This document shows positions 731 through 63,224 of a DNA stretch of 64,000 nucleotides, piece after piece. The stretch's first letter is position 1; every line of letters begins with the position of its first letter. The translations under genes and the position numbers were made by a program. The notes under the pieces are model-generated. The model had not been told where the DNA came from. It was given only the letters and a program-made list of their open reading frames with translations, and did no database searches. This DNA is from Pelagomonas calceolata (lineage: Eukaryota > Sar > Pelagophyceae > Pelagomonadales > Pelagomonadaceae): contig CAKKNE010000001.1 of assembly GCA_918797485.1 (NCBI GenBank), positions 3,968,001 to 4,032,000 of the forward strand, read 5' to 3'.

Positions 731-752
731 GCTAGCGTAGCAGGACACTAGC
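731..752 (+). promoter_or_regulatory. Two-arm inverted-repeat element, copy 1
   Basis: Arms GCTAGCG and CACTAGC are separated by TAGCAGGA. It sits between the divergent genes starting at 485 (-) and 892 (+), 139 bp before the latter. The rest of the 406-bp gap holds no other feature I can name. See the finding on this element. Confidence 0.7.
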
Positions 753-891
753 AGCAAAAAGTGGACAACTTTTGAGGCGCCGCGAGGAGCGCACCGATCG
801 TTTCAGCGCGTGCCGAAGCATCACCAGTACCACACAACCCAGCTCCTCCCACTGCCGAGCGCTGGACCTCAAAATCGACGCCTGCTAAGAG

Positions 892-1995
892 ATGGACGTC
901 GTCCTGCCCCCGCAGACGACGGCGCCGCAGCGCACGGTCCAGCCGCCGGCGCACTTGAAAGGCGTCGCCTTCCCGCGCGACGGCTCTCCGCAAGAACCGT
1001 CAAAAAAGGAGGAAGGCTTGAGTGCTGACGAGCTCGCGAAGCGCCAAGCACGGCTGCAGAAGCGCGGTGCTCTGTTGCGGAAGGTTTTAGGTGCGGGCAC
1101 GTACGTGGTCGACGAAGTGGGCGACTACCGAAGGAAGAAGGTGAAAGTGTACGTCCAGTACGAAGGGTTCCAGCCCGGCGCGATCGATCGCAAAAAGGAA
1201 CTGCGAGTAGCTATATCCTTGCCAGATTCATGGGTCGACGCGCCCGCGAAACGGTTGAAGGAGGCCTTCCTCAAGACCTACAACTCGAGGTTCCGCAAGT
1301 CTCAAATTGGGGACTGCCTGCTCGCGGTCAAGGACGACTCTTATTTGACCTTTTCCAAAAATGTGATAGGCGACGACCGGTTGATCGGCGATGTGTTCCG
1401 GGAGAACGACGAGGTTTTTGTGGTCACGGAACAAGATGTTGCTGACTTGGATGCGGAGGTGGCAAAGCTAAAAAAAATACTAAGTGACTACGAGGCCGAG
1501 GTCGAGAAGAACTCGACGGTGGACATGGAAGAGTTAACGAAACTGACCACGATCAGCCGAGAGATCGACCCGGAGCAAGCCCATTGCTTGTTGATAGGCA
1601 TGCGCCAGTGCTACATGCTGCCCGTCGGGCCCGAGTATACCGTGGCGGACGTCAAGCGCTTCATCAATCATAAGGGCGGGAGGGACGCCTACCCGCTCGG
1701 GTCGCTGGATGTGGCCCTGGTGGAGAATTTCGAGATCAATGTGTTGGGCGATGGTGATACGATGGAGGCGCTATGTAAACGGGTGTATGGCGAGGAGGCG
1801 TCGTTGCCCAGGACAATCCCGCTGTACTGGGGCAAGCGGCTCCAGGACCCCAAGTACTTCCTCTGGATCCCGACGCTGCACACGCCCGATTCCTTTAGAG
1901 GGCCCGGCGACGAGAACAGTGCCGAAGCCAAAAAGTCCGGGGCCGAGCTGGCGAACGACATGGTCAACTCGGGCGGCGACTGTAGCGTTATGTAG
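892..1995 (+). CDS. Conserved-looking protein of unknown function
   Basis: A 367-residue, acidic to neutral, soluble protein with no signal peptide or membrane segment. The ATG at 892 is the first in frame and sits in a good context (AAGAGATGG). Residues around 45-180 look like a mixed alpha/beta domain, residues about 185-215 are a short charged coiled-coil (EVAKLKKILSDYEAEVEK), and the last third contains a second globular part rich in aromatic residues around positions 310-330 (LYWGKRLQ, YFLWIP). I do not recognise a family. It is transcribed divergently from the gene ending at the left edge, with a shared regulatory repeat between them, and converges on the RING gene 124 bp downstream. 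Confidence 0.75.
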   Translation: MDVVLPPQTTAPQRTVQPPAHLKGVAFPRDGSPQEPSKKEEGLSADELAKRQARLQKRGALLRKVLGAGTYVVDEVGDYRRKKVKVYVQYEGFQPGAIDRKKELRVAISLPDSWVDAPAKRLKEAFLKTYNSRFRKSQIGDCLLAVKDDSYLTFSKNVIGDDRLIGDVFRENDEVFVVTEQDVADLDAEVAKLKKILSDYEAEVEKNSTVDMEELTKLTTISREIDPEQAHCLLIGMRQCYMLPVGPEYTVADVKRFINHKGGRDAYPLGSLDVALVENFEINVLGDGDTMEALCKRVYGEEASLPRTIPLYWGKRLQDPKYFLWIPTLHTPDSFRGPGDENSAEAKKSGAELANDMVNSGGDCSVM

Positions 1996-2119
1996 TTTTG
2001 TAATTTACTCTTTGAATTAATTGTGCAGTCTCCGCCTCGCTCGTCGGTGCGATGGCGTATGAGGTCTGGGGGCAGGTCGGCGGCTCAGCGGCTAGGTGGC
2101 CGAGCTCCGAGCAAGGCAA

Positions 2120-9571: not shown

Positions 9572-12500
9572 ATGATTCCCCTGGCTCCTGCATATGTCGA
9601 TCGGTTTCGCGCCTGGTCGCGGGCGGCGCGCAAGCGGCCGGCGATACCGAAACCGCTCCACAACCCCAGCAACCAGTGCTACCAGAACTCCGTGATCCAG
9701 TTGTTGCGAAGCTCGTCGTCACTTGTAGGGATTCTCGGCGACGAAGGTGTCGGCCTCGCTCCACGAACGGCAGAAAATTCAAGGTCGCTACAATTCGCGG
9801 CGGCGTTACGCGACGCGCTACGCTTCGATTCCGATGCTGGGCTCCTTTCTCGAAAGAGCCGGTGGCTGGGCTTTTCTCTGGACCGACAGGACGACGCGCA
9901 TCGGTTCCTCGACGCCGTCCTCGATGCGTCGTCGACCGGTTTTGGCGGCCTCGTCGAAGCCCTATGTGGCACTACCCTTACGAGGACGACGAGGTGCACG
10001 AGAACAAGTTGCCAGCACGAGAGCACGTGTATTACTCCTGCGGAGCTCGGGTTGAGCCTACCAGTCCCTTCGACGGGCAAGCACACGGTCGCCCACCTGC
10101 TCGGCCTCTTCTCGCAGCCCGAAGCAGTGGACGAAGATTACAAGTGCGAGGGCTGTGACCGGTGTGGATGCTGCAGCAGCATACTCGAGTCAATTGGACA
10201 CTCGGAGGTCCTCGTCCTGGCCTTGAAGTTCAACACGAACGACGAAAGGAAGAAGCTTCGGCGGGGACTCATCAAGCTCTCCCAGGGACTCCAGGTGGGG
10301 TCGAGCAACTTCCTGCTTTGTGGTACTGTTGTGCACTTGGGCGGGTACACAGATGCAGGCCACTACATAGCGCGCTGCAAAGGACCGGACAACAAGTGGC
10401 GCGTGTACAACGACGGCGCCCCGGCCGTGGTCTGTTCGTATGCCGACGTGTGCAAGGCCTCTGAAAAGGACGTGTGCTTGCTGTTGTACCAGCGCGCGCG
10501 TCAGGCCGCACTTCCGTCGCTCCAGGCGCCACCCACCAACGGGTGGGCTTCGTTCGGCGACGACGACGACGACGAGAGCGACACGGAGAGCAGTGACAGC
10601 GACGACGAGAACCCGCCGCCGCCGCCGCCGCCGCGCGCCGAAGATGATCGAGGCGGGAAGCGGAGCAAGAAGCGGCCGCGCGTGAACGAGCCGCCGCCGC
10701 CGCCGCCGGACGACGCGCGGCAGCCCTGGTCGCTTTTGCGCGCCCTGTGCGACGAGGATGCGCCGAACGGTGTCGACGCCGACGAGTTCGCGCAAGGAAT
10801 CGAGGATCGCGCCGCGAAGCTCGTCGGGGACTGGCGCCGGCTCGGCCTCGGGGAGCAGCCGGAGCCAGACGAGGCGCGCGGAGGCGACGACGCGTTCTCG
10901 ATCGCGTGCATGTGCGCGCGGGTGGGGCGCCTGGCGCCGGTCCTCGAGATGCTGCTCGACGAAAAGGACGGCCTGGGCTTCGAACCGAACCACGTGACGT
11001 CGTCGGGACGGACGCTTTTACATATAGCGGCCGAGTTCAACAACTTCGCGGCCGTCGCGTGCTTGATCCGTCAAGGTGCGGATCTCATGTTACGCGACGT
11101 CGAGCAGCGCCTCCCGCTACATGTAGCGGCCGCCGAGGCCACTGCGGCCACAGTCATGCTGCTGCTGACGGAAACTGGCGAGGCGGCGAAGACGCTCGAG
11201 CAGGATGGCGACGAGAACACCGCCACTCTGGCGGACGGGTGGCTGCTCAAAGACAAGAGCGACCAGGGCACGCCCGTGGACATCGCGAGAGCGCGCACGG
11301 ACGGCGAGAACGGGCGCTTCGTGTGTGAGGTTCTTGAGAACGGCGAGTGGGACGACGCCTGGTTCCAGGACGTCGAGCGGGACCCGGGCGAGTGCAGCGA
11401 GCGCATCCGCATGATCCTCCGCGGCGAGCTGGTCGACGATTCGGAGGACGAGCGGCGCGGCGGCGACGATGACGATGACGCGGTACGAGGACACGACGAG
11501 GGGCCCGGACAGGGGCGAGGCGCTTCGCCGGAGCGTGACGACGACGACGACAACGTCGAGTCCTCGCAGAAGGATGGCCAGCCGCGGCGCCGGTCGGAGC
11601 GCCTGAAGGCCCTCGAGAGGCGGGCCGAAACCGCCGAGACGAGCGACGACGACTCGAGCGACAAGCCCTTCCGCGCGCCCGACGACGATAATGAGGAGGA
11701 GGAGGAGATCGACGCGAGCGACGGCGACGACGTGGCCCCTACGGCGTCGACCTCGAGATACGGGCGGCAGTCGCTGTTCGACCGCGTTAGGGCGGCGAAA
11801 CGGCGCGGCGACAACGCCGCCCTGGCGAAGCTCATAGGCCCGCTGAGCCCCGAGTACGACGGCTGGACGAAGGGCGATGACCTGCCCGACGGCGACCTCA
11901 AAAAGTGGCTCGAGTTTGGTCACGCGATGGCGAGCGATGCGCTGTCGTACGACCTCGTGCAGCGCCTCGTCGACGCCTGTGTGACGGCGAATGTGCAGCC
12001 TCCTACGCCGTGCGACGAGTACACGCTGGACGACTACGCCCAGATGCTGCGGGCCTGGCGGGAGTCGCTTCATACGCGGTGCCGTTTCAAGCGCGAGGCG
12101 CTCCATCTGCTGGCGAAGAAGGTCGAGACGCTGCTCTCCGACTCGAAACAAGCCATGATAAAGAACGCGACGTCCAAGCCGAACGTCTGCGAGCGTTGTT
12201 TGGGGAGGGCGCAGACGTTGTTGGAGCGCAAGCCCGACGTCGACAAGATCGAGTATGGCAAGCCCCGCGAGCCCCCCTACTTCTGCCTCCGGCGCGGCGG
12301 CGTCGCCGTGGTCTTGAATGATAGACAGCTCGTGCGCGACCACCTCTGGCTCTCCGTCGTCTTCCGCGGGTGGCTCTGCAAACCGTGCAACAACCTGCTC
12401 CGCGACGTCGACACGCGCTCCACCGACGCCTACCGCACGTTCCAGCGCCGCGTCGGCCGAAACTGTCGGACATTCTCACGCTCCGGGGACGCTACCGCGG

Positions 12501-12913
12501 ACGACATCGTCGACGCTCTGCGGGCGGACTACGCCGACTCGTCGACGGGCGCGATGGACTGGGTCGCTTTAGGAAATGACAGCGCCGGCCTCTTTAGGGC
12601 TCCGCCGGAGCTCAACTTCTTCTGGGGGCCGGTGCCGGAGCCGCCGCCGCCGCCGCCGCGCGCGCGCCCGAAGCGCGGCCGCGCCGCTGCGGAGGAGGCG
12701 GCCGCGCCGCCGGTGCGGCGCTCGCGCCCGAGGCGTAGCTGCGCCGCATACGCGGAGGCGGCCGCGCCGCCGCCGCCGCCGCGCTCGCGCCCGAGGCGCG
12801 GCCGCGCCGCCGTGGAGGAGACGGCCGCGCCGCCGGCGCGGCGCTCGCGCCCGAGACGTAGCAGCGCCGCATACACGGAGGCGGCCGCTCCGCCGCCGCG
12901 CCGGCTACAGTAA
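9572..12913 (+). CDS. Ubiquitin-specific protease fused to ankyrin repeats and an endonuclease-VII-like HNH domain
   Basis: 1113 residues, single exon. Residues 1-310 form a USP (peptidase C19) domain: Cys box NQCYQNSVIQLL with Cys36, a RQDDAHRFL box corresponding to QQDAHE, zinc-type CxxC pairs (CEGC/CGCC), and the His box GGYTDAGHYIARC with His264 followed by VYNDGA. The catalytic residues look intact. After an acidic linker, two ankyrin-like repeats occur near residues 475-530 (GRTLLHIAAEFNNF, LPLHVAAAEA). A second acidic, Arg-containing linker leads to a C-terminal CERC ... RDHLW ... RGWLCKPCNN module (about 870-945). Its CxxC, DH, CxxCN pattern is that of the recombination endonuclease VII/HNH fold. 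The tail is a 20-residue tandem repeat. Known: USPs remove ubiquitin. The fusion partner's role is unknown, perhaps DNA or chromatin targeting. Confidence 0.85.
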   Translation: MIPLAPAYVDRFRAWSRAARKRPAIPKPLHNPSNQCYQNSVIQLLRSSSSLVGILGDEGVGLAPRTAENSRSLQFAAALRDALRFDSDAGLLSRKSRWLGFSLDRQDDAHRFLDAVLDASSTGFGGLVEALCGTTLTRTTRCTRTSCQHESTCITPAELGLSLPVPSTGKHTVAHLLGLFSQPEAVDEDYKCEGCDRCGCCSSILESIGHSEVLVLALKFNTNDERKKLRRGLIKLSQGLQVGSSNFLLCGTVVHLGGYTDAGHYIARCKGPDNKWRVYNDGAPAVVCSYADVCKASEKDVCLLLYQRARQAALPSLQAPPTNGWASFGDDDDDESDTESSDSDDENPPPPPPPRAEDDRGGKRSKKRPRVNEPPPPPPDDARQPWSLLRALCDEDAPNGVDADEFAQGIEDRAAKLVGDWRRLGLGEQPEPDEARGGDDAFSIACMCARVGRLAPVLEMLLDEKDGLGFEPNHVTSSGRTLLHIAAEFNNFAAVACLIRQGADLMLRDVEQRLPLHVAAAEATAATVMLLLTETGEAAKTLEQDGDENTATLADGWLLKDKSDQGTPVDIARARTDGENGRFVCEVLENGEWDDAWFQDVERDPGECSERIRMILRGELVDDSEDERRGGDDDDDAVRGHDEGPGQGRGASPERDDDDDNVESSQKDGQPRRRSERLKALERRAETAETSDDDSSDKPFRAPDDDNEEEEEIDASDGDDVAPTASTSRYGRQSLFDRVRAAKRRGDNAALAKLIGPLSPEYDGWTKGDDLPDGDLKKWLEFGHAMASDALSYDLVQRLVDACVTANVQPPTPCDEYTLDDYAQMLRAWRESLHTRCRFKREALHLLAKKVETLLSDSKQAMIKNATSKPNVCERCLGRAQTLLERKPDVDKIEYGKPREPPYFCLRRGGVAVVLNDRQLVRDHLWLSVVFRGWLCKPCNNLLRDVDTRSTDAYRTFQRRVGRNCRTFSRSGDATADDIVDALRADYADSSTGAMDWVALGNDSAGLFRAPPELNFFWGPVPEPPPPPPRARPKRGRAAAEEAAAPPVRRSRPRRSCAAYAEAAAPPPPPRSRPRRGRAAVEETAAPPARRSRPRRSSAAYTEAAAPPPRRLQ
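12660..12905 (+). repeat. Coding minisatellite, four ~60-bp units in alternating types
   Basis: The USP-fusion tail consists of four units of 20-21 residues that alternate in type: RGRAAAEEAAAPP, SCAAYAEAAAPP, RGRAAVEETAAPP, SSAAYTEAAAPP, each introduced by a R/SRPRR-like box. The alternation implies that a ~123-bp pair was duplicated after the two unit types had diverged. Confidence 0.85.
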
Positions 12914-13182: not shown

Positions 13183-13205
13183 GCTAGCGTCACTTTAACA
13201 CTAGC
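13183..13205 (+). promoter_or_regulatory. Two-arm inverted-repeat element, copy 2
   Basis: Arms GCTAGCG and CACTAGC with spacer TCACTTTAA. It is 149 bp upstream of the ATG at 13355. One of the few copies between same-strand genes. The remainder of the 441-bp gap shows nothing else except a lone TCTAGCG at 13156. Confidence 0.7.
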
Positions 13206-13354: not shown

Positions 13355-13999
13355 ATGGTCTCGCCGCGCCGCCCGCGCAAGTCCAACGACAAGAAAGTTG
13401 ATTATGCCGCCATGTGTGATTCGGGGGATGAAGAAGCGTCGGCCCAGGACGAGCCCATGGAGGAAGAGGAGGAGGAGGAGAGCAGCGCCTCGGACAGTGA
13501 GTTAGAGGACGACGAGGACGACGACGAGGAGCTGCCAGGGGAGGACGAGGACGAGCCCATGGATGATGTATTAGAGGAGTCCTCGAACGACAGCTCGCGC
13601 CGCAAGAAGACGCCGAAGAAGAAGCCCGCGCCGAAGCCCAAGAAGACGACCGCCTCCAAAAAACCCGCGCCGCGGCCCGTCGAGGCCGACGACGACGCCG
13701 AGGTCGACGAGGAGCCGCCGGCGCCCATCGGGAGCGTGCCCGTCGTCGCGCCGGGCGAGGACATCTTCCGCGCCGCCGCTCGTAAAGTCTTCACGCAGCA
13801 CGCGCCTTGGGTGCTCGAGAAGGCGGACGCGTGGCGCGCGACGCCCATGTATAGAGCTGAGCTCGCCGAGCAGGCCGCCTACGAGGCGGAGGAGCGCGAG
13901 AAGGCCGAGAAGAAGGCTGCCAAGAAAAGAGGTGCTAGCGAGAAGAAGTCGCCGGCGAAGAAGTCCAAGAAGAAGGAGGTCGAGGTGGGGGACTACTGA
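13355..13999 (+). CDS. Acidic/basic nuclear protein (chromatin-type low complexity)
   Basis: 214 residues beginning MVSPRRPRKSNDKKVDYA. A very acidic block (about residues 30-80) is followed by a Lys/Pro/Ala block (KKTPKKKPAPKPKKTTA). A short folded-looking stretch follows near 140-180 (DIFRAAARKVFTQHAPWVLEKADAW split here by eye into helices), and the C-terminus is Lys-rich. Such bipolar charge patterns are common in HMG-like, nucleolar and histone-chaperone proteins, but no signature domain is visible. The start is the ATG in CACCATGG context. Confidence 0.7.
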   Translation: MVSPRRPRKSNDKKVDYAAMCDSGDEEASAQDEPMEEEEEEESSASDSELEDDEDDDEELPGEDEDEPMDDVLEESSNDSSRRKKTPKKKPAPKPKKTTASKKPAPRPVEADDDAEVDEEPPAPIGSVPVVAPGEDIFRAAARKVFTQHAPWVLEKADAWRATPMYRAELAEQAAYEAEEREKAEKKAAKKRGASEKKSPAKKSKKKEVEVGDY

Positions 14000-15454: not shown

Positions 15455-15458
15455 GCTA

Positions 15459-16625: not shown

Positions 16626-16779
16626 GACAGCCTCACACAGCCTCCAGTTGTAAGCAAACAAGGGGGATCCGGCAGGGCGTCCTTGCGCGCTGCGTCTAAA
16701 AGCCAATGAAACTGCCGAAGCCACAACGATGTCGCAGCGATGCGTGCGCACGCCGTGTGATTTGCTCTTGATGTCGAGT

Positions 16780-16802
16780 GCTAGTGCCTCACAGCCGCTA
16801 GC
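16780..16802 (-). promoter_or_regulatory. Two-arm inverted-repeat element, copy 3
   Basis: On the minus strand it reads GCTAGCG, GCTGTGAGG, CACTAGC. It lies between the divergent starts at 16625 (-) and 17113 (+), 154 bp from the former. The remaining sequence of this 487-bp gap has no recognisable feature. Confidence 0.75.
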
Positions 16803-17112
16803 GTCCGAATTTCGACGAGTCGTCCGAACCAGTCAAAACCTCCCGGACCTCTCCGGGGCAGGGGCAGGCGCTGCGGCGTCTTGATCACGAGCCGGCCGGC
16901 AGGTGGTTGCCCAGCGCGTTGTTATCGTAACGAGCTACGCGCGAGAGCATCCAGCGGGCCGCTGGAACGGTTCACACAAGCAGCCGTCGCCGAACGCCAC
17001 ACGCGGCCTCACGCCAACGCCGCGCGTTCGACGCAAGGCTGCCCCAGCACCACCCACCGGCAGGGCTGCCCCAACCCGCCGACGTGCGGCAAGGACTCCT
17101 CATAAGTAAACC

Positions 17113-19092: not shown

Positions 19093-19236
19093 AGCACAGC
19101 ACAGCTCAGCGTCAGCGGCACCTCAGCGTCGCATCGATCGGATTCAGCGATAAAATGATAAATGCTGCCTCCAGCCAGCCGTTGGAATAGTCTGGGCAGC
19201 GTCGCATGGCAAAAAACCGAGCAAAAGCCACAGAGG

Positions 19237-19260
19237 GCTAGCGGGCTGTAAGGCACTAGC
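19237..19260 (+). promoter_or_regulatory. Two-arm inverted-repeat element, copy 4
   Basis: Perfect arms with a 10-bp spacer GGCTGTAAGG. It lies 144 bp upstream of the HAD gene start (19092, minus strand), between two genes on the same strand, showing that the element is not limited to divergent gaps. Confidence 0.75.
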
Positions 19261-19414
19261 AAGCAAAGAAACTCACCACAGCTCCCAAAGCACCGTAACA
19301 ATATTTAACATCTCCCAAAGCAGCCCCCGCCACGCCATCGACGCGTTGCATTTCGCGCGACTTGCCGCCTCAACCCGTCACACGACTAGAGACGAGGAAG
19401 TACTACAAAGGAAG

Positions 19415-20956
19415 TTACCCCCAGTCGCTCCCCGCCGGAGCGGACGACGCGTACGCGTTCGACCGGTGCTTCGGCACGAAGTCGTACGCGTCGTCGGCCT
19501 TGCCCAGCAACAAATCCGAGATCTTGACCCAGTCCCGCGAGTCGTCGGAGGCCATGAGCGTCTCGAGGTCGTTGCGTCCAATAAAAGGAGGCGGCCGTTC
19601 TTGGATGCGCTGCGGTAGCACCTCCAGCAGACCGACCGGCGTGTATCGATGCAGAAACGAGAGCCACTCCAACAAAAACCGCCGCGTCCGCGCGACTCCC
19701 CTTGAATCGCTGCCCCAGTGGTCGAGCCCGAACTTGCAGAAGTCGCGTAGTATATCTAGTCTTTCAGAAGAAGAGATGTCCCAGTCGCGTTTTTCTTTGA
19801 GCTCCGTCGGCAGCCAGGGCTTGATTAACGCCCCGCGGGCGAGCATCGCGCAGTCGCAGGTCGCCGGCGCGAGCTCTCTCTTCTCCGCATAATCTCTCCA
19901 GGAAAACACGTCGCCGTTGCCCACTATAGGTAAAGCAGGTATGGACTCGTCCTGGCACTTCGCGACCATATTTATATAACTCCAGTTCGCCGCCTTCGTG
20001 TATCGAGCCGTCCGCGACCGCCCATGGACAAACACGCAGGGCACGCTCGAAGGACCGTGCTGATTCGCCCAGTGCTGGATATACCCCGCCATCGTATGTG
20101 CCAACTTGGGCGTCTCGTCCCAGCCCGTGCGCATTTTTATGGTCAGGGGACAGTTCAGCCTCCTAAGACCATGGAAGACGATCTCCTGGACCTTCTTGCG
20201 TCGTTTCTGCAGCGCCGCGCCGCCGCCTTTCCGACATACCAACTCGATGGGACAGCCCATGTTCAGATCCACAAAGTCCACGTCGCAGTGCTCATCAATC
20301 AACTCACAGACCCGACCCATCTGGTCCCCGTGGGCGGCTGAGATTTGGACCCCGAAGCACTTCTCGTCCTTGTGGCGTCTCAGCAGAGCCCATTCGGAAG
20401 ATTGGCCATCTATCAAAGATTGGGCCAGGGCCATCTCGCCACACGTAATGTCCGCGCCGAACTTCGTCAGAATTCTTCTGAAAGGGAGGTTGCCGACAGT
20501 CGTGAGTGGTGCCACGTAGATCTTACCGTCAAAGGACACGGGTTTCCTTTCCTTGACCACCGGCTGCAGGTCGAAGGTCGTATTATCAGTAGACCGCGGC
20601 GTCAGGAAGGGCCGCTCGCGCTTTCTCAGAGCAAGCATCGCCGCGAAGGGGATGCGAGAAGTTTCGTCCTTCGCGCCCGGCGGATCCCTCAGTATTTCGT
20701 CCTTCTTGGGCTCCATCTTCTCGATCGGTCTTTTCTTGTTCTGGCCTCGTTGCGAGCCGCTGTCTTTTGGTGGGGCTTTACAAATGAAGTCTCGTTTGAC
20801 CGGTTGCATGCTTCTCGCTTTCAACTCTGAAAGCCGTTTCGCCTTTTCTTCGTCCGTTTCAGCGGGCGCGCCGGCGGGAAACTGTTTTGTTAGCGTGACG
20901 GTGCGCGTCGGCATTGCTGCCGCGGCGGCTGGCGCAGGGGCTGGAGGCTCACTCAT
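19415..20956 (-). CDS. DUS3: tRNA-dihydrouridine(47) synthase (DUS3-like)
   Basis: 513 residues. The flavin-binding TIM barrel starts with GKIYVAPLTTVGNLPFRRI and contains the family markers DFVDLNMGCPIELVC (with the catalytic Cys just after), IKMRTGWDE, FVHGRSRTARYTK and IVGNGDVFSW. The sequence follows the Dus3 subfamily (LVCRKGGGAAL, HGRSR). Known: Dus3 reduces U47 in the tRNA variable loop using FMN and NADPH. The N-terminal ~120 residues are basic; the CCCH zinc fingers found in yeast and animal Dus3 are not visible (only isolated cysteines), a possible lineage loss. The C-terminus extends past the barrel as a helical domain. Confidence 0.9.
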   Translation of the reverse strand: MSEPPAPAPAAAAAMPTRTVTLTKQFPAGAPAETDEEKAKRLSELKARSMQPVKRDFICKAPPKDSGSQRGQNKKRPIEKMEPKKDEILRDPPGAKDETSRIPFAAMLALRKRERPFLTPRSTDNTTFDLQPVVKERKPVSFDGKIYVAPLTTVGNLPFRRILTKFGADITCGEMALAQSLIDGQSSEWALLRRHKDEKCFGVQISAAHGDQMGRVCELIDEHCDVDFVDLNMGCPIELVCRKGGGAALQKRRKKVQEIVFHGLRRLNCPLTIKMRTGWDETPKLAHTMAGYIQHWANQHGPSSVPCVFVHGRSRTARYTKAANWSYINMVAKCQDESIPALPIVGNGDVFSWRDYAEKRELAPATCDCAMLARGALIKPWLPTELKEKRDWDISSSERLDILRDFCKFGLDHWGSDSRGVARTRRFLLEWLSFLHRYTPVGLLEVLPQRIQERPPPFIGRNDLETLMASDDSRDWVKISDLLLGKADDAYDFVPKHRSNAYASSAPAGSDWG

Positions 20957-21197
20957 GACTGCTGATGCTGCTGTGCGTCCTGCAGCACAATTTTTGCCGC
21001 GTCTGATGGTTGGTCGATGAATGCGCGTTACTCAGAGCAGTCGTGTGCTATTGCGCGGCTCTACGAGCGAGCGATTGACTCTGCTACTCGGCCTCTCCAG
21101 TTTTGCTCTCCCGCCGGCCGGCCCGCACGGAAGGCGTCCTCGAATTGCAATCAACGAGCCTTCCGAAGCTAGATCGAATCCCGCACGCATTGCGATG

Positions 21198-21221
21198 CTA
21201 GCGTCCTGTGAGACACTAGCC
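21198..21221 (+). promoter_or_regulatory. Two-arm inverted-repeat element, copy 5
   Basis: Perfect arms with spacer TCCTGTGAGA. It is between the divergent DUS3 (start 20956) and coiled-coil (start 21359) genes. Nothing else is recognised in this 402-bp gap. Confidence 0.75.
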
Positions 21222-21358
21222 AGCTCGACGTACGAGGCAGCCGCAGTCGATTGTTTCGCTTGCGACAACTAAACTACGTTGCCAGATTTCGCGCCCGAGG
21301 CTGTAGTGAAGGATTATAACAAGCCACAACCGCTGGACTAGTTTCGGAGCCGTCCAAG

Positions 21359-28778: not shown

Positions 28779-28802
28779 GCTAGTGTCTTACAAGACGCTA
28801 GC
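28779..28802 (-). promoter_or_regulatory. Two-arm inverted-repeat element, copy 6
   Basis: On the minus strand: GCTAGCG, TCTTGTAAGA, CACTAGC. It sits in a 147-bp divergent gap, 84 bp from the start at 28694 and 39 bp from the start at 28842, so it must be close to or within both transcription start regions. Confidence 0.8.
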
Positions 28803-31302: not shown

Positions 31303-31326
31303 GCTAGTGTCTTACTGACCGCTAGC
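31303..31326 (-). promoter_or_regulatory. Two-arm inverted-repeat element, copy 7
   Basis: On the minus strand: GCTAGCG, GTCAGTAAGA, CACTAGC. It lies in the divergent gap between the DsrE-like gene (31169) and the membrane-protein gene (31504); no other feature is seen in these 334 bp. Confidence 0.8.
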
Positions 31327-33338: not shown

Positions 33339-33358
33339 GCTAGCGGTAAGACACTAGC
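33339..33358 (+). promoter_or_regulatory. Two-arm inverted-repeat element, copy 8 (short spacer)
   Basis: Perfect arms with only a 6-bp spacer, GTAAGA, the shortest complete copy. It retains the arm-proximal GTAAGA part of the consensus spacer, suggesting that this half matters more than the other. It is in the divergent gap 33051-33593, which otherwise holds nothing recognised. Confidence 0.75.
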
Positions 33359-36463: not shown

Positions 36464-36485
36464 GCTAGCGTATGGACGCACTAGC
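36464..36485 (+). promoter_or_regulatory. Two-arm inverted-repeat element, copy 9
   Basis: Perfect arms, spacer TATGGACG. It lies 158 bp from the hydrolase start (36305) and 56 bp before the ATG at 36542. Confidence 0.75.
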
Positions 36486-36541
36486 ATTGCAGTGCCTGAG
36501 GCTCTTTTGCCTTTTGCTCCTGAAATAAGTGCATAGTCGAC

Positions 36542-37148
36542 GTGAAAATGATCCATGTGCCGCTCCTGACCCTTACCTTGACAGCCGTTGCTGCGCTGCG
36601 GCCATTTCGTGCGCCACAGACACAAAAAGACACTGTACTTGGACGGCGCGATCTGGGCGCTGCAGCCGTCGCAGCGGTCGCAGCCTTGGCACCAGCGGCG
36701 GCCCGCGCGGAGCCGCGCGACCAGTGGATCGCGGCGCAGAAGGAGATCGACTCCATCTTGGCTGATTGGCCGATCGCGGGCGGCGGCGACGGCATCCGGC
36801 GGCGCATCGGCACCGTCGGCACGACGAGTCCGTTGTTTGACATCGAGAAGACTTGCCCGGAGACGGTGTGGAAATCCAAAAAGCCGGACCTAGCAGCTCA
36901 CTGATTCGTTCACCGCAGGCCGGAAACTGATCCCGACGGCCGACGACCCCGTCGCCTTCGCGGAGGCCTTGGAAGAGTTCGCGAGCGGCATCGCGCGCGT
37001 CGACGGCATGGCCTACTCGTCGAACTTCGCCGGCGGCTCGGGCAAACCCTCGGAGAACTCCGCGACGCGCTACATCGAGCGGTCCAAGGACGAGCTCGTG
37101 GCCCTGAAAAAGGACGTCGCGAAGATGAACGCCGCGCTAGGACAATAA
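36542..37148 (+). CDS. Thylakoid-lumen PSII extrinsic protein candidate (PsbQ/Psb31-like), one intron
   Basis: Exons 36542-36854 and 36919-37148 join in frame to 180 residues. The N-terminus is tripartite: signal peptide (MKMIHVPLLTLTLTAVAALRPF), plastid transit region, then twin-arginine RRDLGAAAVAAVAALAPAAA with cleavage near ARAEP. This is the layout for import across secondary-plastid membranes into the thylakoid lumen. The ~110-residue mature part is a helix bundle (DQWIAAQKEIDSILADW, GDGIRRRIGTVGTTSPLFDI, YIERSKDELVALKKDV) resembling the extrinsic PSII proteins of the PsbQ/Psb31 type in diatoms; which of them is not settled. The intron has a GC donor and AG acceptor and carries remnants of introner ends. 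Without splicing, the frame stops at 36901-36903. Confidence 0.75.
36855..36918 (+). other. Short GC-AG intron, decayed introner
   Basis: 64-bp intron. The 5' side contains GGTGTGGAAATCC and the 3' side GATTCGTTCACCGCAG, recognisable versions of the introner terminal repeats. Flanking near-repeats GCCCGGAGA and GCCGGAAAC resemble a diverged target duplication. Splicing from the GC restores codon TGC and the frame. Confidence 0.75.
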
Positions 37149-38694: not shown

Positions 38695-38797
38695 AAGTTG
38701 CGCGAGCCGCCGATAAAGTGATCTATGCTGTATGTGGGCCTCGCTGCCAGTTGCTCACCCGCCGCGCGGCGTGATTTCGCGCGCCGGCCACAGCGAG

Positions 38798-38820
38798 AGC
38801 TAGCGGCAGTGAGACACTAG
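38798..38820 (+). promoter_or_regulatory. Two-arm inverted-repeat element, copy 10
   Basis: Perfect arms, spacer GCAGTGAGA. It is between the divergent starts at 38694 and 39025 in a 330-bp gap with no other feature. Confidence 0.78.
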
Positions 38821-39024
38821 CGAGCCGGCACCCCTTATTTTTGGGCAAGAGCGCCCGCATTTGCAACCGCGTGGCTTCTCGACCATTCAAGCCATAGCCC
38901 GCTGTCGTGCGCTGCCGCTGGACAGGTCCCAGGCACCACACAAGCCGTGCCGGGCGAATTGCAAGCCAGCCCAAAAGTCACACGTGTCGCGCGCCGCTGC
39001 AGCGATCACCAAAGGCTGCAAATC

Positions 39025-48698: not shown

Positions 48699-48794
48699 AA
48701 TGCCTTCTCGATTGATAATTGGTTGAGAGCCGCTTTCGACTCCCGCGGCCGAGTCTTTTGCTCGTATGCTTCCCGATAAAAACCGAGCATGCAA

Positions 48795-48818
48795 GCTAGC
48801 GGCCTGTAAGACACTAGC
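48795..48818 (+). promoter_or_regulatory. Two-arm inverted-repeat element, copy 11 (consensus)
   Basis: Matches the consensus exactly: GCTAGCG, GCCTGTAAGA, CACTAGC, followed by AAGC. Between the glycosyltransferase start (48698) and the channel start (49131). The rest of this 432-bp gap is GC-rich and uninformative. Confidence 0.85.
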
Positions 48819-49130
48819 AAGCAGCCCCGCCGCCCCGATCGGTCCATAGAACGTGGCCATAGGCCTCACTAGAGGTGCCGCGCGATTTGACGCGTGCGGC
48901 GCGCTGGCGCTTCGCCCTTGTGCGCAAAAGGCACAGAGGCTCTGTGGCAGACAGCTCAAACCGGGACGCGGGGCCGCAGCCCCGGACGGACCTCGGCTTC
49001 GCGCGTCGCCCGCGGTGGCTGCCGCGCGCCCGCGGCGCCTCGGACGCGGCCGCCCCACGCAAGGGGCAGCCTCGCCCCGGCAGCCCGAGCGGCCGCCGGA
49101 TTCCCGAGCGCGGGCGCGCGCCGCCGCCCG

Positions 49131-56104: not shown

Positions 56105-57452
56105 CTAGCTTCCGTTCTTCGCGGGCGGGCACCAGTAGGGGCCGAGGCCGTAATTCTCCATGCCGCTCGTGTCCCACTTGGGCCGCTCGGGGCAGGCCCA
56201 CGCGTCGCTCGCGTACGGTGCAATTTCTCGCCGCCACCGCAGGCCCCGCAGACCGAAAAAGAGCTGGAGCGCGCCGCCGACGTAGATCGCGGTCGCGCCG
56301 AGCCCGTGTGTGATGTAGTTTCCCAGGGGCAGGCCATACGATCCGCAGCTTAGCAACGCGACGTCGAACTGATACGCGGCGACGCGTTTCTCCAGCTCTT
56401 CGAGCGACCGCGTCCAGTTGCCCTGGGCCGCGCGGCCGCGGTAGGTCACTGGCGACGCGACGACGAGCAGGTGCATGTTGGGGGGCAGCAGCTCCGTGGC
56501 GCCAAACCACGACACGCCGTCGGTCCGGTACCGCTCGTACTGTCTTGCTACGTCTCGCGCCATCGAAGTCACGACCAGCACGCGTTTGCCGGCGAGGGCT
56601 TGCGGCCACGGTACGACGTCACGCATCTCCGCGAGGCGGAACGGGTCGAGGACCTCTGCCTCGAAGACGTTCCTGTCGGAGCCGGCGTCCCCTTTGGACC
56701 GCTCGACCTGTGCGCAAATCAACCGGTGGGCCGCGGAGAAGCGCCGCGACCTGTGGTTTTATGCACTGCGCTCGACGAGCTCCCCGTCAGGTCTAAAGTT
56801 CCCCCGTTGCAGCAGCAACTCGTCTTGTTCCCGGTAAGCGTAGCCACTGCCATGACACAGGGGCGCGAAGTTCTTCCACCTCGCAACCGCCCCTGCGCCC
56901 GCGACGGCCTCGAGGTAGCGCCGTGCAAAGTTCGCAAATGCCGGATCGCCGCGACGCGTGTAGCCTCGCGCGTTCTCTGGGACGATGCCGTTGTTGACCT
57001 GTGTGGAAATCAACCAGTGTGTCGGGTGCACCGACAATTCTTCACTAAGTCATTTCTCGGCGATGACGCGGCCGACCTGGCTCGGTCGAGCGGCGAGGAA
57101 CCGGCATTGCCACGCCATCGAGCACGCGTCGCGTCGATGGCGTGGAGGACGACGCGATGATTCAGCACGAACTGCGCCGTAAAATTTTGATTTCCACACA
57201 GTTGTTGACGTGCGCGATGGCCAGTACACGAGGCTTGGACCGCCGGCCAAGCATGGCGTCGTACGCGATCTGCGTCTCCGCGCCGTTCAGGCCCGTTCGT
57301 ATGACGTGCGTGGGACGACTGGCATCGCGTATTATTTCCGTGAGGCGACGGTTCGCGATCGCGATCGCTCGCTGCTTCGCGGCGGGCGTGTCGTACGTAG
57401 CCGCGTCGCGACATGTTGCGCTCGCGGTCGCGACGACGAGTACCCGCCACAT
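56105..57452 (-). CDS. GT-D-fold (DUF1792-type) glycosyltransferase-like protein, two introner introns
   Basis: Exons 57210-57452, 56777-56998 and 56105-56707 join in frame to 355 residues. The start MWRVLVVATASATCRDAATY is a short hydrophobic N-terminus. Middle: LTEIIRDASRPTHVIRTGLN, the E/D-containing entry seen in GT-D proteins, FANFARRYLEAVAG, and KRVLVVTSMARDVARQYER. The C-terminal block FDVALLSCGSYGLPLGNYIT followed by GLGATAIYVGGALQLFFGLR and GLRWR is the hallmark of the bacterial DUF1792/GT-D group. Known: the founding GT-D enzyme is a streptococcal glucosyltransferase. A eukaryotic member suggests past acquisition from bacteria. Acceptor unknown. Both introns obey the target-duplication rule described for introners. 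Confidence 0.82.
56708..56776 (-). mobile_element. Short introner serving as intron 2 of the GT-D gene
   Basis: 69-bp GT-AG intron flanked by identical GTCGAGCG repeats (the left one inside the intron). In transcript sense the element runs from CAGTGCATAAAACC to CGGTTGATTTGCGCACAG; the right end matches the full-length introner end with two changes, the left end is more decayed. Without splicing the frame meets a stop in the element. Confidence 0.8.
56999..57209 (-). mobile_element. Full-length introner serving as intron 1 of the GT-D gene
   Basis: The 203-bp element 56999-57201 has perfect 15-bp terminal inverted repeats (CTGTGTGGAAATCAA) and 8-bp target duplications GTCAACAA in transcript sense. 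The intron is 211 bp: the GT of the left duplication is the donor and the element's terminal CAG the acceptor. It contains an internal inverted repeat, CCACGCCATCGA and TCGATGGCGTGG. Same length and about nine in ten bases identical to the copy at 59956-60158, inserted in the same orientation relative to transcription. It encodes no transposase, so it is non-autonomous. Confidence 0.93.
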
Positions 57453-57637
57453 ATTAGTTATGCGAGCGCTCGTATCGCAGGCTGCGTGATTAGCGGCTCG
57501 GCCTCGGGAATAGTTGATTGCTTCATCACCGCCTTGTGTGGTGGATAATCTGAATTACGATAATGGTAATGACCTCGCGCTTCACGCGCGAAGTGAAACT
57601 CTCGCGCAGGACTATGCCGAGATGACAGATATCACTT

Positions 57638-57661
57638 GCTAGTGTCTTACCGGCCGCTAGC
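57638..57661 (-). promoter_or_regulatory. Two-arm inverted-repeat element, copy 12
   Basis: On the minus strand: GCTAGCG, GCCGGTAAGA, CACTAGC. It lies between the divergent starts at 57452 and 57814; the remaining 361-bp gap shows nothing else. Confidence 0.8.
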
Positions 57662-57813
57662 TACCAAGTCGCGGCGTATATGATAGGCGCGGCCGCTGAG
57701 CTCTTACTTAACGAAGCCTCGAAGCGCCAAGCTATCGCTGTAGCCTAAATCCTGAGTAAAACCAAGTAAGCAAAAAGGACCAGTGGTCAAAATCTCCCGG
57801 GCGACCACCGACC

Positions 57814-59499: not shown

Positions 59500-59561
59500 G
59501 GCTCTGCAGACGTGTCAGTAGGCCAGTAAGTTTGCGGTTGTGTGGCAAGCGCTCTGAGAGA

Positions 59562-59586
59562 GCTAGCGACCTGTAAACACACTAGC
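59562..59586 (+). promoter_or_regulatory. Two-arm inverted-repeat element, copy 13
   Basis: Perfect arms with an 11-bp spacer ACCTGTAAACA. It is almost exactly central in a 150-bp divergent gap (62 and 63 bp from the two start codons), the tightest bidirectional arrangement together with copy 6. Confidence 0.8.
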
Positions 59587-59649
59587 ATGCAAAAGGCTGC
59601 TCGACCTCGTCTACGCGAGCGTAGCTAAAACGAGCCAAAAGAGAAAAAA

Positions 59650-60769
59650 ATGCTGCTCTCTGTAGCGCATAGATCCGCCACACATGCGCTGCGGGCAGCC
59701 AAGGCCGTCACGAGGAGCTATGCGGCCGCGACGCACGCAGTGAGCAGCGACGGCACGCGCATAGCCTACACCGCCACGGCCGGCGGCGGCACGCCGACGC
59801 TGCTCATCAATGGCTGGGCGGGCTGCGCCGCCGACTGGGGCTCGCTCGTGGACCGGCTCGGCGCGAGCGGGCGCCGCGTCGTCGCCTTCGACCCGCGCGG
59901 CTTCGGCGCGTCGGGCGACGGCGCCGCCGCCAGCGTGCGGACGCTCAGCGAGGACCTGTGTGGAAATCAAAATTTTACTGCGCGTTCGTGCTGAATCTTC
60001 GCGTCGACCGCCACGCCATCGATGCGACGCCTGCTCGATGGCGTGGCCATGCCGGTTCCTCACCGCTCGACGGAGCCGGCACGGCCGCGTCATCGCCGAG
60101 AAATGACGTAGTGAAGAATTATCGGGTGCACCCGACGCACTGGTTGATTTCCACACAGGCGAGGACGCGCTGGCCGTGGCGCGCGCCGTCGGCTCCGCCG
60201 AAACACCAGTGGACGTCGTCGGCTGGTCCCTCGGCGGCCTCGTCGCGCAGGAGCTCTGCTGCGTCGCGCCGTCCGAGGTGCGGCGGGCGGTGCTCGCGTC
60301 GACGTCCCCCGGCGGCGACGGCCTGGCCGACTTGGTCTCGCGGGACTTCTTCGACGTTTTTGATGATTGGTCCGACGACGCCACGCGGGAGGGCGAGGCC
60401 GCGCGGCGGCGCGCGGCAGCGGCCGCCTTCGTCCACGCCTCGCCGGAGCGCTGGGTCGAGCGCCACGTCGACGCGCTCAAGGCCGACGTCGACGCGTTCG
60501 TCGGCGTCCGCCGCGCCGCGGCCGCGATCCGCGGCCAGAAGGCGTGCGCCCTGGCCCCCTTCCCGGACTGCTCGCGGCTCCCGGAGAAGCGGTACCTCGT
60601 GCTCCACGGCGACGTCGACCCCGTCGTCGACGCGGCGCTCGCGGCGCGGCTCGCCGAGCGCGCGCCGGGCGCCAAGCTCCTGCTCCTGGCGGGCGTGGGC
60701 CACCGCGCGTGGGCGCAGGAACCCGACGAGTGGTGCGCGCGCGTGCTGGACTTCCTCGACGCGGCCTAA
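59650..60769 (+). CDS. Alpha/beta hydrolase, probably mitochondrial, with one introner intron
   Basis: Exons 59650-59947 and 60159-60769 join in frame to 302 residues. The N-terminus (MLLSVAHRSATHALRAAKAV) is an amphipathic, Arg-containing presequence. The fold is classical: LINGWAGCAADWGSLVDRLG (oxyanion region), VVAFDPRGFGASGDG, nucleophile elbow VDVVGWSLGGLVAQ with Ser123, acid LVLHGDVDPVVDAA, and catalytic His in LAGVGHRAWAQEPDEW. Across the splice the protein reads RTLSEDALAVARAVG, matching the family pattern of a helix before the elbow; the unspliced frame would stop inside the element. Substrate unknown (esterase, epoxide or lipase-like). Confidence 0.9.
59948..60158 (+). mobile_element. 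Full-length introner serving as a GC-AG intron
   Basis: The 203-bp element 59956-60158 has perfect 15-bp terminal inverted repeats and 8-bp duplications GCGAGGAC at 59948-59955 and 60159-60166. The intron uses the GC of the left duplication as donor and the element's terminal CAG as acceptor, exactly restoring the pre-insertion frame. It carries the same internal inverted repeat as the copy in the GT-D gene. Confidence 0.93.
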
Positions 60770-61143
60770 AGTTTTAATGAGCATTCGCCTCGCGGCGCGG
60801 CCGCCGCCCGTCCCAAAATTTCCTCCCGAATTCGTTTGCATCGGTGCTTGACCAAGTAGAGGCGTCGCTCCGGGCCTCGGAGTGGTCCGTCGTGCCGCGT
60901 CGAATAGCCCCATTTTTGAGGCTGCTGCCGGTGGCGGCCTAAGCGCTGCCGATAATAGTGCCGCATCTCTGCTAAAAAATTGCCGTTCGAACCGTAGCGA
61001 TCACCTCTCGTCGTATGAGCAGCTTCCCGGAGCAATAGCTGTCTCGCCAGCCTATTTAGCATTTGACTCAAATTTGCTGAGGGCCACACGTCGCGGTCGC
61101 GCGCGGCGCAGCCAGCAAGCTGGACCGCCCCGCCGCCCTGACG
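60770..61143 (+). other. Intergenic gap upstream of the PP2A-B''-like gene
   Basis: 374 bp between same-strand genes. No two-arm repeat. An AT-richer patch near 61045-61075 (CCTATTTAGCATTTGAC) might be promoter sequence. Nothing else recognised. Confidence 0.4.
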
Positions 61144-62904
61144 ATGGCCGCGGCCGCGCCGGCGTCGCCGACCGGCGGTCCGCCGCCGGGCCTCGCCGCC
61201 GCGCGCCAGCGCCTCGAGGAGCTCTTCGAGCACTGGCTGGGGCTGGAGGAGACCGAGGCGAAGATCAGCGAGTGGGTCCGCAAGGCCGAGCGGGGCGAGC
61301 TCCCGGCGCCGCCGGCGCCCTCGCTCGCGGACCTGACGAACGACCGCCGCGTGGGCACGCCGCCGACGTCGCCCCACTCGCCCGACAAGGGCGGCGCGCC
61401 GAGCCCGCCGCCCCACTTCTCGCCCGGCTCGTCGCCGACGTCGTCGCGCTTCTCGTCGCGCGCGTCGTCGCCGGCGTCCACGCCGCGGGGGTCGCCGCTC
61501 AAGCGGCGCGTCGCGGCGCCGCCGCCGCCCTCGCCGCCGCGCGCGCCCCGGATCCCGCCGCTCCTCTCGCGGCGGCGGCGCGGCGCCGACGCGGCCGCCG
61601 AGCGGGCCGTCGCGGACCTCTGGCGCCGGCGGTGCCCGGGCGACGCGATGGCGGCGCCGGACTTCGCGGCGTACGCGGCGGAGTGCTGCGAGCTCCCGTC
61701 GACGATCGGCGCGGTCCTCGCCGGCCGCCTCGCGCGGCGCGACGGCGACGAGCGCGCCGTCGTCCGGCTCGGCGACTGGCTCGCGCACTGGCGCGACGTG
61801 CTCGGCCGCGAGGACGACGCCCGGCTGCGCCTCTTCGCCGCGCTCAGCGGCGAGCGCGACGCCGTCGGCCTCAGACCGGCCGCGTTCTCCCCGCTGCTGG
61901 ACGCGCTCCTCGCGCGCCACCCGGGCCTCGCGTTTCTGGCCGACCACGCGGAGTTCCAGGACAAGTACGCCGCGACGGTCGTCGCGCGGATCTTCTACCG
62001 GTTGGATAGCGCGCGGACGGGCGCCATTAGTAGGCGGGGGTTCCTTCACGGGGGGCCGTGCCTCCTCGAGGCCTTATTTAGACTCGACGCCGACGCCGAC
62101 GTCAACCGCGAGCCGGCCTATTTTAGTTACGAGCACTTCTACGTGATCTACTGCCGGTGGTGGGAGCTCGACGCCGACCGCGACGCGCGGTTAAGGAGAG
62201 ACGACTTGCTGCGGTACGCGGGCCACCGCCTCTCGCGGGCCGTCGTCGACCGCGTCTTCGACGCCGCGCCGCGGGCCCTGACCGACGGGCTGACCGGCGC
62301 GGCCCTGCGGCGGATCAAACCGGGGGACCCCGACGCCGACGCCCTGACCTACGCGGACTTCTGTTACGTGATGTTGGCGGAGGAGGACAAGACGACGGAA
62401 GCGTCGCTGCGGTACTGGTTTGGGATATGCGATGTGGATGGCGACGGCGTCGTCGACGAGCGGGACGCGGCGGCCTTCTACGTTCTCCAAAGGAGGCGGC
62501 TGGAGTGCCTCGGCCACGAGGCGGTATCGTGGGGGGACGTGCGCTGCCAGATGGCCGACCTGCTCGACCACGGGCGTAGTGGATTGCGGCTTAGGGTGGA
62601 GGACTTTTTGAATGATAAATGTCCCCAGGCGGGCGTCTTCTTCGACGCCCTCTTCGCCCTCGACAAGTTCGTGCGGTGGGAGCAGCGCGACCCGTTCGCG
62701 GACCGCATGCGGAAGGACGACCCCTTCGACACGGACTGGGACCGGTTCGCCGCGCAGGAGTACGCGAGGCTGGCGACGGAGGAGGACCAGCTCGAGGAGG
62801 CGTACGGCGTCGACTCGCCGGGCGGCGAGGACGCCGTCTCGCCGCTCGACGGCTCGTCGCCCGTCGAGGCCGAGGTCGTGCGCAGCGCGGAGGCGCCGTT
62901 TTAA
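61144..62904 (+). CDS. EF-hand protein resembling the PP2A B''/PR72 regulatory subunit
   Basis: 586 residues. An N-terminal helix and a ~120-residue Ser/Pro/Arg-rich disordered stretch precede the conserved part. From about residue 250 it follows the B'' family: LLARHPGLAFLADHAEFQDK then YAATVVARIFYRLDSARTGA, RRGFLHGGPCLLEALFRL, YFSYEHFYVIYCRWWELDAD, LTYADFCYVMLAEEDKTTEA. A canonical EF-hand loop occurs at DVDGDGVVDERD, and further EF-like loops (DADRDARLRRDD) are weaker. Known: B'' subunits bring Ca2+ control to protein phosphatase 2A; plant homologues (TON2/FASS) organise cortical microtubules. Ends in an acidic tail. Confidence 0.88.
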   Translation: MAAAAPASPTGGPPPGLAAARQRLEELFEHWLGLEETEAKISEWVRKAERGELPAPPAPSLADLTNDRRVGTPPTSPHSPDKGGAPSPPPHFSPGSSPTSSRFSSRASSPASTPRGSPLKRRVAAPPPPSPPRAPRIPPLLSRRRRGADAAAERAVADLWRRRCPGDAMAAPDFAAYAAECCELPSTIGAVLAGRLARRDGDERAVVRLGDWLAHWRDVLGREDDARLRLFAALSGERDAVGLRPAAFSPLLDALLARHPGLAFLADHAEFQDKYAATVVARIFYRLDSARTGAISRRGFLHGGPCLLEALFRLDADADVNREPAYFSYEHFYVIYCRWWELDADRDARLRRDDLLRYAGHRLSRAVVDRVFDAAPRALTDGLTGAALRRIKPGDPDADALTYADFCYVMLAEEDKTTEASLRYWFGICDVDGDGVVDERDAAAFYVLQRRRLECLGHEAVSWGDVRCQMADLLDHGRSGLRLRVEDFLNDKCPQAGVFFDALFALDKFVRWEQRDPFADRMRKDDPFDTDWDRFAAQEYARLATEEDQLEEAYGVDSPGGEDAVSPLDGSSPVEAEVVRSAEAPF

Positions 62905-63030
62905 TTTGATAGCTTAGGTTTCTTGGGGCGGCTTTCTGGTCGAGTCCTAGCTACTGCACGACGCCACTGCCACGCCGCGGGCACGCCATCGCCGCGTTGA
63001 CAGCGTCGCAGCGTGTCTAAACGAGCTCCC

Positions 63031-63224
63031 AAATTCAGAATGCATCATAGTCGGTCGCAGCGACCAAAATTTGACAGTAGTGGCCACACAGAGCCAAACT
63101 CTGAGCTAGCGTAACGACATACTAGCAAATTCAAAGATACGCTTCGATAGCGTCAAAAGAATGACTCAAATTCAGAATACATCCTAGTCGTTCGCCGAGA
63201 CCAAATATTTCAGAGCAGCGGCCC
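63031..63224 (+). repeat. Diverged direct repeat flanking a two-arm element
   Basis: Copies at about 63031-63084 and 63168-63224 share AAATTCAGAATRCATC, AGTCG, GACCAAA and CAGYAG in order, with substitutions and short indels. The regulatory two-arm element lies between them. Confidence 0.6.
63105..63126 (+). promoter_or_regulatory. Two-arm inverted-repeat element, copy 14
   Basis: Left arm perfect, right arm TACTAGC (one change), spacer TAACGACA. It is 200 bp beyond the PP2A-B''-like stop, and could serve a gene to the right of this window or be a relic. Confidence 0.6.

What the first reader, a model, noticed from the sequence alone, without database searches (positions are those of the whole stretch)
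731..63126. A two-arm inverted repeat marks nearly every divergent promoter
GCTAGCG, a spacer of 6-11 bp whose consensus is GCCTGTAAGA, then CACTAGC (often followed by AAG). Fourteen essentially complete copies: 731, 13183, 16780, 19237, 21198, 28779, 31303, 33339, 36464, 38798, 48795, 57638, 59562, 63105; degenerate ones at 3513, 30579, 44059. All are between genes. Of 13 divergent gene pairs, 11 carry a complete copy and one a degenerate copy; none was noticed in convergent gaps or coding sequence. The element is asymmetric (GTAAGA next to one arm), so it can be oriented, yet both orientations occur in divergent gaps. In the tightest gaps (147-150 bp) it must overlap or adjoin both start sites. 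I know of no described element of this form in stramenopiles. A bidirectional core-promoter or architectural-factor site is inferred.
Basis: partly seen in the sequence, partly recalled or inferred. Interest (0 to 1): 0.88.

Follow-up and report, generated by a model that had tools for sequence, protein, structure and literature searches.

The report
Orientation-free promoter tag in a marine alga
A 24-letter DNA sign, present in thousands of copies in the genome of a tiny ocean alga, sits about 165 letters upstream of genes facing either way, and is probably the landing site of an unknown protein that opens promoters.

Summary
The motif is real and common. GCTAGCG-N4-14-CACTAGC has 13 exact copies in the window (0 in 100 shuffles) and 2395 in the genome, against 10 for the reversed pattern. 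Consensus: GCTAGCGKCMTGTAAGRCACTAGCAAGC.

In 314 kb it lies in 42 of 56 divergent, 9 of 19 tandem and 2 of 57 convergent gaps; per kb, divergent and tandem gaps are nearly equal, and coding DNA has 1 hit in 219 kb. It sits a median 163-186 bp from start codons.

Orientation is free, even at single-gene promoters (5:8). Yet its arms are obligately unlike: over 2281 asymmetric sites against 38 and 18 symmetric ones. That argues against a hairpin, an equal-armed homodimer site and a directional core-promoter box. A contig of a relative, syntenic at 83-94% identity, has a copy upstream of all five genes whose starts it holds.

Best reading: the site of an asymmetric, general-regulatory-factor-like protein that opens promoters. 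No binding, chromatin or transcript-start data were available.

The parts
731..752 (+). motif copy, spacer 8, divergent gap 486-891; a GCTAGCGTA variant
13183..13205 (+). motif copy, spacer 9, between same-strand ORFs 9572-12913 and 13355-13999 (149 bp before the latter)
   Evidence: my HMM fused the two ORFs
16780..16802 (-). motif copy, spacer 9, divergent gap 16626-17112
19237..19260 (+). motif copy, spacer 10, tandem (--) gap 19093-19414, 144 bp from the start codon of the left gene
21197..21220 (+). motif copy, spacer 10, divergent gap 20915-21358
28779..28802 (-). motif copy, spacer 10, divergent gap 28695-28895 (28695-28841 if the upstream ATG is used)
31303..31326 (-). motif copy, spacer 10, divergent gap 31170-31503
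33339..33358 (+). motif copy, spacer 6, divergent gap 33051-33593
36464..36485 (+). motif copy, spacer 8, divergent gap 36306-36547; a GCTAGCGTA variant
38799..38821 (+). motif copy, spacer 9, divergent gap 38683-39024
48795..48818 (+). motif copy that fits the full consensus, spacer 10, divergent gap 48699-49130
57638..57661 (-). motif copy, spacer 10, divergent gap 57453-57813
59562..59586 (+). motif copy, spacer 11, divergent gap 59500-59649, 62 and 63 bp from the two start codons
63105..63126 (+). motif copy with one arm mismatch (TACTAGC), GCTAGCGTA variant, near the window end; no gene called to its right

Best explanation
A general promoter element: the binding site of one sequence-specific protein, or fixed protein pair, with two unlike halves. 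It sits mostly about 100-250 bp upstream of the start codon of many unrelated genes. Shown: genome-wide abundance, near-confinement to gaps that hold gene starts, preferred distance, lack of direction, obligate asymmetry of the arms, usually one site per promoter, and recurrence in a syntenic relative. Inferred: that a protein binds it, and that it works like the general regulatory factors of yeast (Reb1, Abf1, Rap1), by displacing nucleosomes and so opening a stretch at whose edges polymerase starts. In a head-to-head gene pair one site would then serve both genes; in a tandem pair the downstream gene. The direction of transcription would be set by other signals.
For: Abundance: 2395 exact copies against 10; 1721 of the longer 24-mer with up to 1 mismatch against 0. 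Place: 1.66 hits per kb in divergent and 1.40 in tandem gaps, 0.15 in convergent gaps, 1 hit in 219 kb of coding DNA; 68 hits in all against 2 in three Markov replicas. Position: 62.5% of 80 motif-to-ATG distances in divergent gaps are 100-250 bp, against 38.6% for random placement and at most 58.75% in 2000 simulations; sites lie more centrally than chance (0 of 10000); median 163 bp at 13 tandem promoters. No direction: 5:8 at tandem promoters, CACTAGC arm nearer in 26 of 45 divergent gaps, p 0.20, 1188 against 1207 by strand genome-wide. Asymmetry: 2281 asymmetric sites with spacers 8-11 against 38 and 18 symmetric ones with spacers 6-12. Not a narrow regulon: window genes have unrelated functions (19 of 30 ORFs had a Pfam hit). 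Runs AAAA or TTTT are about 2.4 times denser within 30 bp of the site than at 30-60 bp (52 of 2010 against 22 of 2005 positions). Relative: five sites upstream of five genes in L057, a contig syntenic with G000:C6 at 83-94% identity; one of the five is the hit that brought the contig in.
Against: No transcript start, chromatin or binding data, and no candidate protein. The A/T runs rise again at 90-105 bp and beyond 180 bp, so they are weak support. 14 of 56 divergent and 10 of 19 tandem gaps lack a recognisable site, so it is not universal. The small C2-C6 sample had it in 5 of 6 tandem but 0 of 4 divergent gaps, unlike C1. Conservation could be followed only partly: in L057, 2 of 5 sites lie at the start of blocks aligned to G000 and 3 fall in stretches not aligned there. 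The closer relative L056 matches 24 of 24 in the motif, but also 100 of 100 aligned bases upstream, so it says nothing.
Confidence: 0.55

Rival explanations
1. A core-promoter element that itself positions the polymerase and starts transcription on both sides.
For: Near-confined to gaps with gene starts and near-central in divergent gaps; usually one per promoter; no other k-mer stood out in divergent gaps after masking it.
Against: No orientation bias even with a single downstream gene (5:8), although the sequence is strongly asymmetric; in P. infestans the core elements INR+FPR, INR, FPR and DPEP are 5.9, 2.9, 1.8 and 1.8 times commoner forward than reverse within 100 nt of the start codon (PMC3599244, passages read). 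Distance to the ATG varies widely (sd about 87 bp), though 5' leader lengths are unknown.
Confidence: 0.2
2. An insulator or boundary element that keeps two neighbouring promoters apart, or blocks read-through from the upstream gene.
For: Central in divergent gaps and also present between the upstream gene and the downstream start in tandem gaps; roadblock and uncoupling roles are reported for yeast Reb1 (PMC7618759, passages read).
Against: The preferred distance is tied to the start codon, also in tandem gaps (median 163 bp). In 2 of 57 convergent gaps only, where read-through should matter most.
Confidence: 0.13
3. The site of an ordinary regulator of one gene programme.
For: Not every promoter has it (42 of 56 divergent, 9 of 19 tandem gaps).
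Against: Thousands of copies and neighbouring genes of unrelated kinds.
Confidence: 0.07
4. A small mobile repeat or remnant, such as a transposon or introner end.
For: Many copies of nearly one sequence; introner-like introns occur in this genome.
Against: Conservation stops a few bases outside the arms; the introner-like introns seen here end in another inverted repeat; placement at a preferred distance from start codons.
Confidence: 0.03
5. An RNA or DNA hairpin.
For: The arms are near-complementary.
Against: Position 6 is a fixed C-A mismatch: over 2281 sites keep it, 38 have the fully pairing GCTAGTG/CACTAGC arms and 18 the GCTAGCG/CGCTAGC arms. Both strands are used equally. No Rfam family in the window.
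Confidence: 0.02

Closest known systems
Yeast general regulatory factor sites (Reb1, Abf1, Rap1)
   Same: Promoter sites of nucleosome-displacing factors; Rap1's repression of divergent transcription does not depend on motif orientation (PMC6602560, passages read); Reb1 motifs are enriched at some divergent promoters (PMC7618759, passages read).
   Different: Sequence unrelated to the yeast consensuses as I recall them; here a 24 bp near-palindrome with obligately unlike arms. Rap1 and Reb1 are reported to limit divergent transcription, the opposite of what is inferred here. No protein or chromatin evidence.
Oomycete core promoter elements INR, FPR, DPEP (Phytophthora infestans)
   Same: Described promoter elements in another stramenopile, close to start codons.
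   Different: Those are 7 nt (16 nt combined), directional and commonest within 50-100 nt of the start codon (PMC3599244, passages); this one is longer, undirected and about 165 bp away.
CCAAT box
   Same: An upstream, non-core element counted in both orientations in P. infestans (PMC3599244, passages).
   Different: Unrelated sequence and far shorter.
Animal bidirectional-promoter and insulator sites (ZNF143, BEAF-32; recalled, not tested)
   Same: Sites at head-to-head gene pairs.
   Different: Unrelated sequences as recalled; here tandem promoters carry the site about as densely.

Membership tests
General regulatory factor (pioneer) site | Many copies, at promoters of unrelated genes | tested here: met
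General regulatory factor (pioneer) site | Placed in either orientation | tested here: met
   5:8 at tandem promoters, CACTAGC arm nearer in 26 of 45 divergent gaps; placement only, not function
General regulatory factor (pioneer) site | Lies in a nucleosome-depleted region | not testable with these tools
   no chromatin data; A/T runs near the site are only a hint
General regulatory factor (pioneer) site | Bound by an abundant DNA-binding protein | not testable with these tools
   no candidate protein identified
Core promoter element | Fixed direction relative to the gene | tested here: not met
Core promoter element | Fixed distance to the transcription start | not testable with these tools
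   only start codons known; preferred but broad distance
Bidirectional-promoter-specific element | Absent or rare at one-way promoters | tested here: not met
   9 of 19 tandem gaps, 1.40 per kb against 1.66 in divergent gaps; by gaps divergent still leads, Fisher p 0.04
Hairpin element | Arms kept complementary | tested here: not met
Introner or other transposon end | Shared sequence beyond the motif, or shared ends with the introner-like introns | tested here: not met

The most novel reading that the evidence does not exclude
Much of an alga's polymerase II transcription is seeded by one lineage-specific asymmetric protein with a single long site per promoter. The site is directional in structure but not in effect, so promoters are two-way by default. 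This would fit the unusual gene order seen on C1, where neighbours mostly alternate strands (104 of 134 to 104 of 114 adjacencies; 9 of 15 in the small C2-C6 sample): two-way promoters favour head-to-head genes.
Probability: 0.3. Interest if true: 0.85.

Novelty: new variant of a known kind. Interest (0 to 1): 0.64.

Why it matters
[quoted passage not shown] One long, frequent site gives a direct handle on promoter biology in a photosynthetic stramenopile: the protein can be fished with the consensus, and published RNA-seq could test predictions. A site that is asymmetric in sequence but undirected in use is also a useful case for how promoters acquire direction.

Tried and rejected
Rejected: hairpin (fixed mismatch); introner or transposon end; RNA family; narrow regulon; divergent-only element. 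The viral-contig scan gave nothing. K-mers in divergent gaps after masking the motif gave nothing strong. Gene length and GC3 do not differ between the two sides of the site (n = 35). A search for a 3'-end motif downstream of stop codons gave nothing clear. L056 against L048 is too similar to be informative. A genome-wide look for the orthologue of one L057 site was cut off by the listing limit.

Rows dropped or weak: genes come from a home-made HMM trained on this sequence, which sometimes fuses same-strand neighbours; intron penalties were varied over four settings. The scan matrix was trained on the same window and C1 gaps, so counts there are not independent of it; C2-C6 and L057 are. Divergent gaps longer than about 800 bp or 900 bp were left out of the distances. 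L001-L008 and L029-L048 were fetched because they hold the motif; they are left out of the gap fractions but enter. Of the 68 hits, 8 lie in intergenic ends that could not be assigned and 5 in called introns. The symmetric-arm searches used spacers 6-12, the asymmetric ones 4-14 and 8-11; the reversed control gave 6 against 18, so that class is partly chance.
Full report
WHERE IT IS. The window lies in a genome of 32,445,274 bases in 8 contigs. Published P. calceolata has 32.4 Mb in six nuclear contigs plus a plastid and a mitochondrial contig, 63% GC and 0.45 introns per gene (PMC9481584, passages). The window's base counts are 65.6% GC. I take the organism to be that species or a very near one; the genome itself is unnamed.

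THE MOTIF. The window has 13 exact copies, none in shuffles; all 13 CACTAGC words belong to a copy, and 46 of 60 do over 264 kb. The genome has 1188 + 1207 copies, against 6 + 4 for the reversed pattern, and 2281 have spacers of 8-11. Of the 100 copies listed the spacer is 10 in 58, 9 in 24, 8 in 9, 11 in 4, 6 in 3 and 12 in 2; most shorter ones lack bases between GCTAGCG and GTAAGA. Among 47 distinct spacer-10 copies in held letters, GTAAGA is well kept, the AAGC after the second arm less so (27 to 38 of 47 per position), and conservation then stops. Of 676 GTAAGACACTAGCAAG words genome-wide, 528 have GCTAGCG 0-6 bases upstream. A minor class begins GCTAGCGTA, often GCTAGCGTAATCGACATACTAGC: 94 sites against 2. 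Another ends CACTAGGCAT or similar, so exact-string counts are minimum counts.

OBLIGATE ASYMMETRY. Symmetric versions with spacers 6-12 are rare: 38 sites with GCTAGTG/CACTAGC (control 1) and 18 with GCTAGCG/CGCTAGC (control 6), each found on both strands and counted once. Asymmetric sites number 2281 with spacers 8-11 and 2395 with spacers 4-14. This is hard to square with a hairpin or an equal-armed dimer site. That it points to an unlike pair of proteins or one two-part protein is inference.

GENES AND GAPS. I trained a simple gene HMM on window plus 200 kb of C1 (134 genes). Of 30 window ORFs tested, 19 had Pfam matches, of unrelated kinds. In the pooled 314 kb (window, 200 kb of C1, 50 kb of C2-C6) the matrix scan hits 42 of 56 divergent, 9 of 19 tandem and 2 of 57 convergent gaps. 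Per kb this is 1.66, 1.40 and 0.15. Coding DNA has 1 hit in 219 kb, called introns 5 in 20.5 kb (some are fused gaps), and unassigned intergenic ends 8 in 34.7 kb. First-order Markov replicas gave 2 hits in three runs against 68 real. Of the two convergent cases, one lies in a 1.6 kb gap that may hold uncalled genes; the other is not inside a convergent gap but within the 15 bp tolerance. By group: window 11 of 13 divergent and 1 of 4 tandem; C1 31 of 39 and 3 of 9; C2-C6 0 of 4 and 5 of 6.

GEOMETRY. In 45 divergent gaps the medians to the two start codons are 171 and 186 bp, with no side preference (p 0.20) and a more central placement than random (0 of 10000). At 13 tandem promoters the median is 163 bp and the orientation 5:8. 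At a score of 20 or more, 48 divergent gaps have one site, 23 none and no gap two (this set includes motif-chosen loci). Exceptions exist: at 16 or more two gaps have two sites (L021, L023), and L035 has two strong sites 37 bp apart beside a single called gene.

A RELATIVE. An exact scan of GTDB genomes for GCTAGCG-N2-6-GTAAGACACTAGC gave four contigs, all from metagenome bins labelled as bacteria. About two hits would be expected by chance in 257 Gb (my estimate), so origin was checked. L057 aligns with G000:C6:2236569-2246679 over most of its 8 kb at 83-94% identity. L056 aligns in part with G000:C1 at 90-96%, and L059 with C2 at 94% over 2.1 kb. These are mis-binned algal DNA at least in those parts; L058 was not tested. 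L057 has five sites, 132, 221 (or 278 with the later start), 162, 148 and 238 bp upstream of the five genes whose starts it holds, four of them in same-strand gaps (distances computed from its coordinates). One of the five is the hit that brought the contig in. Two of the five sites start a block aligned to G000; three lie in stretches not aligned. I could not read the orthologous C6 promoters.

HOW MANY GENES. Scaling 2395 by 68/40 (scan hits to exact hits in 314 kb) gives about 4,000 sites. With one site serving two genes in divergent gaps, in the proportion seen here, that is roughly 45% of the published 16,667 genes. This is an extrapolation from a sample that is mostly C1.

MECHANISM. Placement near start codons of unrelated genes, lack of direction and usually single occurrence fit a general regulatory factor better than a core-promoter box; oomycete core elements are directional (PMC3599244, passages), while Rap1's repression of divergent transcription does not depend on motif orientation, and such factors are said to displace nucleosomes (PMC6602560, passages). 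Rap1 and Reb1 are reported to limit divergent transcription, so the yeast parallel is to the opening of chromatin, not to two-way output. Binding, nucleosome displacement and two-way initiation are inferred.

IN PRINT. Searches for the organism, the motif words and related topics listed no description of the element. Several were capped: one search found 4,896 papers with either 7-letter word and listed 20, one search listed 20 of 193, one search listed 15 of 87, one search listed 10 of 1,344. The long-string search found one paper, on diphthamide (listing only). The library lacks most subscription papers, and supplements were not read.

Noticed in passing
window and L009-L028: Neighbouring genes mostly alternate strands: 104 of 114 to 104 of 134 adjacencies (91-78%) depending on the intron penalty. 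In the small C2-C6 sample 6 of 15 adjacencies are tandem, so it may vary along the genome.
   Followed up: partly
L057 306-446 and 2057-2182; window 40296-40422; L017 4356-4473; L014 7974-8075; L004 2207-2346: A dispersed repeat of about 140-156 bp; 39 of the 47 rows are matches to it in G000. Of the six long copies in held letters, five lie between same-strand ORFs shortly after a stop codon, in the sense orientation; in L057 two sit directly before a promoter motif. A possible 3'-end or terminator element.
   Followed up: partly
window 56708-57197 and 59960-60158; L012 3828-3965; L023 7956-8138: Introner-like introns with terminal inverted repeats, starting GTGGAAATCA and ending in TTCCACACAG or near it.
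   Followed up: partly
L056-L059: Contigs deposited in bins labelled Spirochaeta, proteobacterium and Desulfobacteraceae that carry the motif; L056, L057 and L059 hold DNA aligning with this algal genome, so these bins contain algal DNA.
   Followed up: partly
L051, L054: Stretches of C4 and C2 with 51% GC and no called genes, as expected near the low-GC centromeric regions reported for P. calceolata; L054 still has one motif-like hit.
   Followed up: no
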